The position numbers and the translations under genes are program-made. The notes beneath the pieces are model-generated. The model did no database searches, was not told the DNA's origin, and saw nothing but the letters and a program-made list of their open reading frames with translations. A stretch of DNA of 64,000 nt from an uncultured Spirochaetales bacterium (lineage in GTDB: Bacteria > Spirochaetota > Spirochaetia > Sphaerochaetales > Sphaerochaetaceae): the NCBI GenBank assembly GCA_944390865.1, contig CALXRC010000002.1, positions 1-64,000 of the forward strand. The letters run 5' to 3'. How positions within the stretch are numbered: the stretch's first letter is position 1; the number at the start of each line of letters is the position of its first letter. This document shows, piece by piece, positions 10,324 to 13,270 of this stretch.

Positions 10324-11619
10324 CTATTTTACTTCAAGATCGTCCGGCTCACCCCTGTCAACCTTCTTCATCGTGAAGAAGGCCGCTGCCATAAAGAAGG
10401 CAGTGAAGAGAAAGAGCGCCGGATAACCGAACAGATCAATGCAGCCTCCGGAGATCGGCGGAGCAATGATGCTGGCGGCCTGGCTGAAAAAGTAGTACAG
10501 GCCTGTATAAATTCCAACTGTGCTGTAAGTGCTCATCTGCCAGAGCATCGGGAAGGAGTTTGTGACAACGGAAACCCAGAAGACTCCGAACAGGAACAGC
10601 AGGAGCCAGAACGTGAGCAGCCGCGGCACAGCGGCCCAGGAAGCAGAGATGTAGCTGTGGGCAAAGACAAGCACAGTGACAGCCGCCAGAAGCGCCAGGG
10701 AAACCCTGATTGTCTTCTTCCTGCCAAAGCGGTGCGCAACCTTGCCGGAAGGAATCGCGAAGATAGCGTAGGCAATGCCGACCATGCCGGCAGCAAGGCT
10801 GGCTGTTCCGGAAGAAGTGCCCAGCACCTCAACGCTGTACAGTCCGACAAACGGAAGGACTCCCTGGTATGCGATGAACCAGCAAAGCAGGGAGATCAGA
10901 ATGAACAGAGCACTTTTGTCCTTTTGCGCAAAGACAATTTTCAGGCTCTTCAGCACAGGCTCCTTTTTCTCAGAGGAGGACTCCTTTGCGACTGCGGAGT
11001 TCTTTTCCTTTACAAAGATGAAAAGAAGGATGACCGCAGCAATGACAAAGACTGAAGCGACGGGGAAAGCGAGTATGTTGTTCACGCTCTCTCCTGAAGG
11101 CAGTGTGATATACACATCCATAAGACGGGCAAGGGCAATTGTTCCGAGTATTGTGGCAATGCCGCCCATTGTGTTGATCACGCCGTTGGCCTCCGAACGA
11201 AGATCGGCAGGAACCATGTCCGGCATGAGGGCGACCACAGGGCCTCTCACCGCCTGTTTCGACAGGTTGAAGATGAAGACCGCCGCGATGAGCAGCCAGA
11301 GAGAAGAAAGCGCTGAGAACGGGATCAGGGCGAAAAGCAGGGCTGCGGCAGGCAGGAAGCTTATGATATAAGGCATCCTTCGCCCTATTCTGGTGCTGGA
11401 CCTGTCGCTGAGGGCAGAAAACAGCGGGATCATGAATATGGCCAGAACATTGTCAAAGGTCATGATCAGACCGATAACTGTGCTGCTGTCAATGTAGCGT
11501 GCAAGAAAGATGGGAATATAAGTATCGTAAAGAGGATCCATCAGCCCCATTGTGAAAAAGCCGAGTCCGATAAGAAAGGTTGTCAGATAATATCCCTTCA
11601 GGCTCTTTTTCTCTGCCAT
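10324..11619 (-). CDS. MFS transporter, SLC45/GPH sugar-transporter-like
   Basis: 431 aa with 12 predicted helices. The conserved loop DRSSTRIGRRMPYI after helix 2 is typical of the SLC45/sucrose and GPH-like branch of the major facilitator superfamily. The helix 4-5 loop has RGPVVALMPDMVP, also typical. Probable role: sugar or glycoside uptake or efflux across the inner membrane. The beta-barrel gene follows immediately and could form the outer-membrane partner. The start ATG at 11619 lies only 20 nt from the stop of iscB. Its own RBS is poor and its original upstream region has been displaced by the IscB element. Confidence 0.78.
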   Translation of the reverse strand: MAEKKSLKGYYLTTFLIGLGFFTMGLMDPLYDTYIPIFLARYIDSSTVIGLIMTFDNVLAIFMIPLFSALSDRSSTRIGRRMPYIISFLPAAALLFALIPFSALSSLWLLIAAVFIFNLSKQAVRGPVVALMPDMVPADLRSEANGVINTMGGIATILGTIALARLMDVYITLPSGESVNNILAFPVASVFVIAAVILLFIFVKEKNSAVAKESSSEKKEPVLKSLKIVFAQKDKSALFILISLLCWFIAYQGVLPFVGLYSVEVLGTSSGTASLAAGMVGIAYAIFAIPSGKVAHRFGRKKTIRVSLALLAAVTVLVFAHSYISASWAAVPRLLTFWLLLFLFGVFWVSVVTNSFPMLWQMSTYSTVGIYTGLYYFFSQAASIIAPPISGGCIDLFGYPALFLFTAFFMAAAFFTMKKVDRGEPDDLEVK

Positions 11620-11639
11620 AAAATCGCCGCAGGGTACTC

Positions 11640-11653
11640 CTATGCTTGCATAG
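11640..11653. repeat. Perfect palindrome at the right end of the IscB element
   Basis: CTATGC-TT-GCATAG overlaps the iscB stop codon. IS200/IS605-type elements end in subterminal hairpins recognised by TnpA, so this may mark the element's right end. The exact boundary between here and the MFS start codon at 11619 cannot be fixed without an empty site. Confidence 0.4.
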
Positions 11654-12893
11654 GGGATGAATGCGGCACCCTCCTTGTATAGATTCTTGTCTTTGCATGC
11701 TCAACGAGCACGGTCTTTCTCATTAAGACGTATTTCGAAACCGTTCCATCAGCGTATCTGAGGTTCAGCCTTCCGTCGGACTTCCTCGCAGCCACCAGTG
11801 CCCCCTTCCCGTCATGAAGACAGATGTCGTATCGCTGGTATCCTCTGATGTATCTTGGACCCTGCTGGTTCTGCCTTCTCCCTCCCTTCTTCAAGTTGTC
11901 CTTACAGAGTTTCCTGTTGTGGCAGCGTACCTTCAGGATGTCGTAGATATCGTCACATCTTGAAGCGTGAAGGTTCCCAGCGATGCAGAAGGCGTCGTCC
12001 GCATGGCTCTTCCCGAGGCCGAGGCTGTTCCTCACGTGGTTCGTGATGTAGCCGTAGGTCTGCGTTACGGGGATATCAGGATGCGCAGCCCTGACCTTGT
12101 CGAGGAGGAACCAGCGCATCGTCGACATCTCTGTCGCGCCTTTGAAGCCTTTGTTTTCAGGGAAGGGGATGTCCAATGGACTCTTTCCATTGTGGTGGTT
12201 CGTGTGGCATTTTTCGCAGAGCGTGATGAGGTTGGCCGGCCGGTCGGAGCCTCCATCCTTGAGCTGGACGATGTGGTGGACTTCCAGGTGCTCATAGCTG
12301 CCACAGTTCCAACAGGTGAAATTGTCCCTTGCCTTCACATACGCCTTGACGTTCTTGTAGCCCCGTTGCTCCCCCTCCTGATAACGCTTGCCTTCGATGT
12401 CCTCGTCCTTGATACGCTGTATGTCGAAGGATGCCGTCTCGATGACGGTCTTTGAGACGGGGAGGATGGAGCACACGTCATTGATGACATTCACATGAGA
12501 GCGGATCTTAGTCTCCATCGTGGGGGTGAGCCAGCCCTTGGGACGCTTCCTGTTGTCGAAGCGGGGCTTCCTGTGCCTCAGACGGGAACGTCTTGACCGC
12601 CTTGATTCCCGTCTTGCCGTCATGAGCTTGGGGACATCATCCCTTAACGCGACTTCCGCACTGAAAAGCTCTTCCTTCTCCGTCGATGCCGAGAGCCCGA
12701 CATGCTTCGAGCCGGCATCCACGCCGAGCGTCACAGGCTGTGTGCAATGGGTCTGCGGCTCGTAGAGGAGCTGGATTGTGAAGGGCGAGCGCTTTACGAC
12801 CTTCGCCTGTTTGCGTCTCAGAAGCCACTTCACCTTGCCGTACCTCTTTGTAGGCATCAGCGGCCTTCCTTCCTTGTCGATGATGTAGACCAT
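11640..12893 (-). CDS. iscB: IscB RNA-guided nuclease (Cas9 ancestor family)
   Basis: 417 aa, compact as expected for IscB. Order from the Met at 12893: PLMP domain (RPLMP at 10-14); RuvC-I GVDAGSK with Asp59; Arg-rich bridge helix (RRESRRSRRSRLRHRKPRF, about 94-112); RuvC-II with Glu152 (VIETASFD); HNH domain with CxxC at 194/197, HH at 206-207, Asn221 and CxxC at 226/229; RuvC-III KSHADDA with His297 and Asp299/300; C-terminal TAM/target-interacting domain. All catalytic residues of both nuclease centres appear intact. AAGGAGGA precedes two in-frame ATGs (12896 and 12893). An ORF extension to 13127 runs through the RNA gene and is not protein. No TnpA is adjacent. Known: IscB uses an omega-RNA to cut double-stranded DNA. 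Confidence 0.93.
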   Translation of the reverse strand: MVYIIDKEGRPLMPTKRYGKVKWLLRRKQAKVVKRSPFTIQLLYEPQTHCTQPVTLGVDAGSKHVGLSASTEKEELFSAEVALRDDVPKLMTARRESRRSRRSRLRHRKPRFDNRKRPKGWLTPTMETKIRSHVNVINDVCSILPVSKTVIETASFDIQRIKDEDIEGKRYQEGEQRGYKNVKAYVKARDNFTCWNCGSYEHLEVHHIVQLKDGGSDRPANLITLCEKCHTNHHNGKSPLDIPFPENKGFKGATEMSTMRWFLLDKVRAAHPDIPVTQTYGYITNHVRNSLGLGKSHADDAFCIAGNLHASRCDDIYDILKVRCHNRKLCKDNLKKGGRRQNQQGPRYIRGYQRYDICLHDGKGALVAARKSDGRLNLRYADGTVSKYVLMRKTVLVEHAKTRIYTRRVPHSSPMQA

Positions 12894-12896
12894 CAT

Positions 12897-13188
12897 TCCT
12901 CCTTGACCTCGATTGAGGTAATGCCGGATTACTCCGGTCGCCGGGCCTCTCTCCCGGCTATCCCAGGCCGATGTTGTCCCGGGGTTTACTGCCAGCCGCA
13001 CGGCCCCCTCCCGTGAGGGCGTTTGACGGCAGGCCGCAGAGCAGGGGGCTGGGACGCGCCTTGCGGCTTGCACCCCCTGGTGCCTATATATTCCCGGGCA
13101 ACGTAGTTCAGGACGGATGTCCTTCACTCCGGCTGATCACCTTGGGCACAAGCCCCTATCCTTGGATAGCGGGTCGGTGACATGAAAA
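12897..13188 (-). ncRNA. Omega-RNA of IscB (scaffold upstream of iscB, guide at its 5' end)
   Basis: This 290-nt gene-free, GC-rich stretch lies immediately upstream of iscB on the same strand, the expected place for the omega-RNA. Reading the minus strand from about 13183 it has successive hairpins: CTATCC-AA-GGATAG, GGGC-TTGT-GCCC, GGAC-ATCC-GTCC, GCACC/GGGTGC, GCC-GCAA-GGC, CCCTC-ACGG-GAGGG, GCCGGG/CCCGGC and CCTC-AATC-GAGG just before the iscB RBS. The scaffold appears to start near GTCACCGACCC. The bases 5' of it (about 13184-13200, GGAGCGTTTTTCAT) would be the guide, copied from flanking host DNA. The exact ends are inference. Confidence 0.8.
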
Positions 13189-13270
13189 ACGCTCCTTTCA
13201 GCACTGTATCACAGACTGGGGACTCGTGTCGTTGCAAGTAAGGCAAAAAAAAGGTAAAACATCCAGCTGT

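What the first reader, a model, noticed from the sequence alone, without database searches (positions are those of the whole stretch)
11640..13200. Compact, apparently intact IscB nuclease with its omega-RNA readable upstream
The 417-aa protein keeps every expected element: PLMP motif, RuvC Asp59, Glu152 and Asp299/300, bridge helix, HNH His206/207 and both zinc CxxC pairs. The 290 nt upstream fold into a string of at least eight hairpins on the same strand. Functional IscB-omega-RNA pairs are still few, and a spirochaetal one at this size would be a new compact RNA-guided nuclease candidate.
Basis: partly seen in the sequence, partly recalled or inferred. Interest (0 to 1): 0.75.

Follow-up and report, generated by a model that had tools for sequence, protein, structure and literature searches.

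The report
IscB transposon inserted at start codon
This is an intact member of a known family of mobile, RNA-guided DNA-cutting systems (IscB with its guide RNA, an ancestor-type of Cas9); the less expected part is that this copy and most of its relatives sit exactly between a host gene's ribosome-binding site and its start codon.

Summary
The 417-aa protein is an IscB (NCBIfam guided_IscB, 325.7 bits against a cut-off of 175) with the RuvC and HNH catalytic residues in place. The 225 nt upstream are a full-length Rfam HEARO RNA (the omega-RNA; 88.3 bits, gathering score 83). A 93%-identical copy at another site in a second spirochaete defines a 1,562-bp element (11620-13181, minus strand). 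dN/dS between these copies is 0.18, so the gene has been kept functional. As a system this is a known kind: the size is ordinary (active MG35-1 is 429 aa) and there are several copies in this genus. The element lies exactly before the start codon of an MFS transporter and separates it from its ribosome-binding site, which now forms the predicted guide. In two spirochaete genera, 24 of 24 resolved right ends abut ATG(A/G), and 19 of 24 are native gene starts (recR, ligA, xerC, hflC, recG, rsfS, mutS2 and others), against about 3% by chance. The same arrangement appears in other phyla. The predicted TAM is therefore ATGR. I found no report of this in the open-access library, but key papers were not available. 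RNA expression and cleavage are inferred, not shown.

The parts
11620..13181 (-). whole mobile element, 1562 bp (13181 may be a flank base)
   Evidence: homology to L063/L011 (93.3% over win 13181..11612, different flanks on both sides); length
12957..13181 (-). omega-RNA scaffold (HEARO RNA)
   Evidence: Rfam RF02033, 88.3 bits, model 1-211 complete
13182..13198 (-). predicted guide segment, AAAGGAGCGTTTTTCAT; it is the orphaned ribosome-binding site and spacer of the MFS gene
   Evidence: lies directly 5' of HEARO; only perfect copy in the genome; guide position inferred from published IscB geometry
13192..13198 (-). orphaned Shine-Dalgarno AAAGGAG
   Evidence: sequence; anti-SD pairing of the left flank -9.0 kcal/mol
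11640..12893 (-). IscB coding sequence, 417 aa, including stop at 11640-11642
   Evidence: dN/dS 0.18 against the L063/G011 copy
11639..11654 (-). right-end hairpin CCTATGCAAGCATAGG (IS200/IS605-type candidate)
   Evidence: sequence; the last 50 nt of the element fold at -18.8 kcal/mol
11616..11619 (-). predicted TAM / target motif ATGG, which is also the start codon of the MFS gene
   Evidence: 24 of 24 resolved right ends abut ATG(A/G)
10324..11619 (-). host MFS transporter gene whose start codon abuts the element
   Evidence: orthologues in 15 other genomes of the genus align from residue 1-2; NCBIfam MFS matches

Best explanation
The locus is a non-autonomous IS200/IS605-like element made of an omega-RNA (HEARO) and an intact IscB nuclease, inserted exactly in front of the start codon (ATGG) of an MFS transporter gene. 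Most likely mechanism: the upstream transcript runs through the old 5' leader, the omega-RNA, iscB and the MFS gene. The last ~16 nt of the leader, carrying the orphaned ribosome-binding site, become the guide. IscB with this RNA recognises the unoccupied site (leader sequence followed by the TAM ATGG) and cuts it, so that the element is restored or kept there after a transposase acting in trans has excised it. Shown: protein family, catalytic residues, RNA family, element ends, selection on the protein, insertion at the start codon, absence of the element at this gene pair in relatives. Inferred: transcription, guide use, TAM, cleavage, trans-acting Y1 transposase.
For: IscB equivalog match 325.7 bits; PDB relatives OgeuIscB and others at E about 1e-48; full-length HEARO above the gathering score. 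The 93% copy elsewhere has different flanks on both sides. dN/dS is 0.18. The kamA-MFS pair is adjacent without the element in nine genus members, 71-115 nt apart. The MFS protein aligns from residue 1-2 in all 15 other genomes. The left flank ends in AAAGGAG plus spacer. Start-codon insertion is found in 19 of 24 spirochaete elements and in eight annotated plasmid elements from other groups. Y1 transposase genes exist elsewhere in the genome. No second guide match with a TAM occurs in the genome.
Against: No expression or cleavage data. The HEARO score is only 5 bits above the gathering score. No same-species genome without the element was available, so the empty site is inferred from relatives with diverged intergenic DNA. 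The guide and TAM rest on flanking DNA and published geometry. No transposase is encoded in the element. The AlphaFold model was too poor to use (mean pLDDT 41.5).
Confidence: 0.9

Rival explanations
1. The element is a decaying or domesticated remnant: the RNA or nuclease no longer works, and its position before the MFS start is an accident without function.
For: The HEARO score is lower than that of most relatives (88.3 bits against up to 143.6); HEARO-only and truncated copies are common.
Against: Catalytic residues intact; dN/dS 0.18 between copies at different sites; the RNA matches model positions 1-211 and differs from the L063 copy at only 7 of 225 positions.
Confidence: 0.07
2. The element has been co-opted as a regulator of the MFS gene, with the omega-RNA-IscB complex binding the promoter or leader rather than acting for its own spread.
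For: Insertion inside the leader, same strand, guide made of the leader sequence.
Against: The nuclease is not inactivated, unlike the known nuclease-dead TnpB-derived repressors (own knowledge). Sites differ between genomes: no HEARO match of another genome of the genus lies at the MFS gene. The occupied site lacks guide plus TAM in register.
Confidence: 0.05
3. About the start-codon bias only (compatible with the best explanation): it is survivorship. The transposase needs just ATGR, insertions inside genes are lost, and insertions before a start remain because translation still reaches the gene by coupling to iscB.
For: In every intact-iscB element examined the iscB stop lies 20-24 nt before, or overlaps, the flanking ATG; a few insertions inside genes do exist (G015:C49, G008:C28, G397:C31).
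Against: Intergenic ATGR sites that are not starts should be common among survivors, but only one was seen (G000:C4). Even with 15% of permissible sites being starts, 19 of 24 has P about 4e-12.
Confidence: 0.5

Closest known systems
IscB-omegaRNA (OMEGA) systems, e.g. OgeuIscB (PDB 7XHT)
   Same: PLMP, arginine-rich bridge helix, split RuvC with an HNH insert, guide RNA encoded directly upstream, no large REC lobe
   Different: 417 aa instead of 496; a second CxxC pair in the HNH domain; predicted TAM ATGR; spirochaetal host
HEARO elements (Rfam RF02033; MG35-1, 429 aa, PMC9755519)
   Same: RNA family, architecture and size
   Different: Nothing categorical. Precise insertion at start codons is documented here for this lineage; from memory, earlier work on HEARO named ATGA/GTGA as the integration motif, which could not be checked
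IS200/IS605 elements with TnpB
   Same: Terminal hairpin, fixed short target motif, accessory RNA-guided nuclease, non-autonomous copies
   Different: The guide comes from the left flank and the motif lies on the right; no tnpA in the element
TnpB-derived nuclease-dead repressors (TldR)
   Same: RNA-guided protein with a guide matching a gene's leader region
   Different: Here the nuclease residues are intact and the position is not conserved between species

Membership tests
IscB | Full-length match to the IscB protein family above the curated cut-off | tested here: met
   NF040563 325.7 bits, cut-off 175, residues 3-306
IscB | PLMP domain, RuvC D-E-H/D residues, HNH His residues, arginine-rich bridge helix | tested here: met
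   Alignment to OgeuIscB chains; invariant columns across A1
IscB | Guide RNA (omega-RNA) encoded just upstream on the same strand | tested here: met
   HEARO RF02033 at 12957-13181 (-), full length
IscB | RNA-guided, TAM-dependent DNA cleavage | not testable with these tools
   needs biochemistry
HEARO RNA (RF02033) | Score at or above the curators' gathering score over the whole model | tested here: met
   88.3 bits against 83, model 1-211, not truncated
IS200/IS605-like mobile element | Discrete ends, present at different sites in relatives, absent at this site in relatives | tested here: met
   L063; element-free kamA-MFS pairs
IS200/IS605-like mobile element | Fixed short motif at one end | tested here: met
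   24 of 24 right ends abut ATG(A/G)
IS200/IS605-like mobile element | Own Y1 transposase | tested here: not met
   no tnpA in the 1562-bp element; Y1 matches lie elsewhere in the genome. Typical for IscB elements, which are only sparsely found next to TnpA (PMC9755519); so it is called IS200/IS605-like, not an autonomous member
Nuclease-dead RNA-guided repressor | Loss of catalytic residues | tested here: not met
   catalytic residues intact

The most novel reading that the evidence does not exclude
IscB/HEARO elements of this lineage are start-codon specialists. They recognise ATGR, settle between a gene's ribosome-binding site and its start codon in the gene's own orientation, turn the gene's leader into their guide, and keep the gene translated by coupling it to iscB (the stop lies 20-24 nt before, or overlaps, the host ATG). 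Guides containing a ribosome-binding site could in turn favour other gene starts as new targets.
Probability: 0.4. Interest if true: 0.65.

Novelty: new member of a known kind. Interest (0 to 1): 0.42.

Why it matters
The nuclease itself is one more IscB. The placement matters more. It gives a specific predicted TAM (ATGR) and guide for testing. It suggests how such elements can sit in front of housekeeping genes such as ligA, recR and recG without killing the host. It also suggests that host promoters drive omega-RNA production. If the start-codon habit proves to be targeting rather than survival, it would be a new answer to how small transposons avoid harming their hosts.

Tried and rejected
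(1) 'The element brings its own ribosome-binding site for the host gene': right ends show no anti-SD enrichment over other ATGR sites (P 0.86). Rejected as a general rule; some ends, including the three HEARO-only copies with a resolved end, do carry a candidate SD. (2) An AlphaFold2 model from a 3-row alignment: mean pLDDT 41.5, not used. (3) A viral-contig scan for relatives: none. (4) Literature searches for start-codon insertion of IscB/HEARO/IS605: none found; the 2009, 2015 and 2021 primary papers are not held. (5) A second genomic target for the guide: the nearest has 2 mismatches and is not followed by ATGR. (6) G008:C28 first looked like a gene start but, judged by eye from the flanking ORF (a YczE-like gene), is probably inside the gene; it is counted against.

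Full report
Observation. The minus-strand ORF at 11640-12893 encodes a 417-aa protein. It matches Pfam RRXRR over residues 3-175 and HNH over 195-236, and the NCBIfam equivalog guided_IscB at 325.7 bits against a cut-off of 175. The closest solved structures are IscB proteins (E about 1e-48 to 1e-49). Read off that alignment, the RuvC residues Asp59, Glu152, His297 and Asp300 and the HNH pair His206/207 are all present. The RNA upstream is not merely a run of hairpins: it is a complete match to Rfam HEARO (RF02033) at 12957-13181, 88.3 bits, E 1.6e-16.

Element ends. A search of one genome per species found a 92%-identical protein in an uncultured Spirochaetales bacterium (L063; the same locus as G011:C10). 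DNA identity is 93.3% from window 13181 to 11612. On the left it stops at the first HEARO base. On the right it runs to ...GCGGCGATTT(T/C) plus the shared ATGGC. The element is therefore 11620-13181, 1562 bp, with a hairpin CCTATGCAAGCATAGG near its right end. The flanks of the two copies are unrelated, so the element is or was mobile. dN/dS between the two IscB genes is 0.18 (55.5 synonymous and 39.5 nonsynonymous differences), so the protein has been under selection since they separated. The element has no transposase; Y1 transposase genes are elsewhere in the genome.

The site. In 15 other genomes of the genus the MFS protein aligns from residue 1 or 2 of the window's version, so the ATG at 11619 is the native start. 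In nine of them the kamA-like gene and the MFS gene are divergent neighbours 71-115 nt apart with nothing between (sequences). In the window they are 1606 nt apart, that is 44 nt once the element is subtracted. Just left of the element stands AAAGGAGCGTTTTTCAT, a ribosome-binding site and spacer now cut off from its start codon. By the published geometry of IscB (guide at the 5' end of the omega-RNA, TAM 3' of the target), this segment is the guide and ATGG is the TAM. The guide has one perfect match in the genome, at the element itself; the nearest other has two mismatches and is not followed by ATGR.

Is the site a coincidence? I collected HEARO elements from this genus and a neighbouring genus of the same family. 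For 24 the right end is resolved, in most families by loss of homology between copies. All 24 abut ATG followed by A (17) or G (7), and then A or C. In 19 of 24 the ATG is the start of a gene. For nine of these I checked that family profiles begin near residue 1: RecR 2 to 5, LigA 5 to 1, XerC 10 to 2, HflC 8 to 5, purine nucleoside phosphorylase 4 to 5, RecG 3 to 6, RsfS 10 to 3, MutS2 8 to 3, and a MATE transporter 15 to 9 (protein residue to profile position); the MFS start rests and the remaining nine on inspection of the translated ORFs. Known neighbours are split by the element: ybaB|recR, hflK|hflC, tctC|tctB, yqeK|rsfS (neighbour names by inspection). One more element (G405:C11) sits inside an Rpn-like gene at what looks like the internal start of the RpnS antitoxin, a known gene-within-gene start (PMC10327210). 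Exceptions are G000:C4 (not a gene start), G015:C49, G008:C28 and G397:C31 (inside genes). ATGR occurs 21.7 times per kb over both strands, so at roughly one gene per kb about 3% are gene starts; 19 of 24 has P about 4e-25 at 3%, and 4e-12 even if 15% of tolerable sites were starts. Independently of any gene call, the 20 nt left of the elements pair with the anti-Shine-Dalgarno better than the 20 nt before other ATGR sites in the same loci (median -7.9 against -3.3 kcal/mol, P 4e-6, n = 21).

Beyond spirochaetes. Among 21 plasmid or phage loci with related IscB genes, eight have the annotated start of the next gene exactly at the element end: Finegoldia, Anoxybacillus (thioredoxin gene), Cetobacterium, Pseudoalteromonas, Deinococcus (between parA and parB), Campylobacter, Polaromonas and Pseudomonas veronii. 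About nine do not (for example Ligilactobacillus, Clostridioides, Nostoc) and four are unclear. All eleven loci of this set that were scanned against Rfam carried a HEARO match; the other ten were not scanned. The habit is thus widespread but not universal.

How the host gene survives. The first idea, that the element brings a ribosome-binding site, failed as a general rule. Instead, among the spirochaete elements with an intact gene that were measured, the iscB stop lies 20-24 nt before the flanking ATG, or overlaps it as TGATG or ATGA; overlaps of the same sort are seen in Pseudoalteromonas, Campylobacter and Polaromonas. Overlapping stop and start codons and translational coupling by termination-reinitiation are described for bacteria (PMC6728339, abstract), so coupling of the host gene to iscB translation is a reasonable inference. 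It is not shown. The three HEARO-only copies with a resolved end (before hflC, rsfS and an aminotransferase-like gene) do carry SD-like motifs (-5.8 to -7.0 kcal/mol), as would be expected where there is no iscB to couple to; three cases are few.

What is known and what is new. The system is a new member of a known kind. Its size is ordinary: MG35-1 is 429 aa and active (PMC9755519), and relatives here are mostly 400-450 aa. From memory, the first description of HEARO gave ATGA or GTGA as the integration motif, which is consistent; that paper is not held and may already mention start codons. The library searches I could run found no such report. Targeting and survivorship are not separated by these data; I regard them as about equally likely.

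Noticed in passing
L108 (G000:C4:28079-29594) and L133 (G000:C18:1-1026): Two further IscB copies in the same genome, about 50% and 45% identical to the window's; the second is cut by a contig end and abuts a FecCD-like permease start.
   Followed up: partly
L115, L127, L149: HEARO-only, MITE-like copies of about 355-360 bp without iscB, placed before hflC, an aminotransferase-like gene and rsfS, with Shine-Dalgarno-like motifs at their right ends.
   Followed up: partly
L110, L145, L148, L144, L108, L133: In this element family the iscB stop codon TGA takes its A from the flanking ATG (TTTG|ATGA), so the ORF end is completed by the insertion site.
   Followed up: partly
L144 (G405:C11): Element inserted inside an Rpn-like nuclease gene at the apparent internal ribosome-binding site and start of the C-terminal RpnS-like ORF.
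   Followed up: partly
L126 and L128 (G005): Two iscB genes differing by only two nucleotides at different sites (a Wzz-like gene and ligA), suggesting very recent transposition.
   Followed up: no
L116, L117, L120, L122, L123, L124, L147, L150, L153: Many HEARO copies lie at or near contig ends, so multi-copy elements probably break these assemblies and copy numbers are underestimates.
   Followed up: no
L148:476-660: Weak match to Rfam Ysr141 (45.1 bits, gathering 196); probably chance.
   Followed up: no
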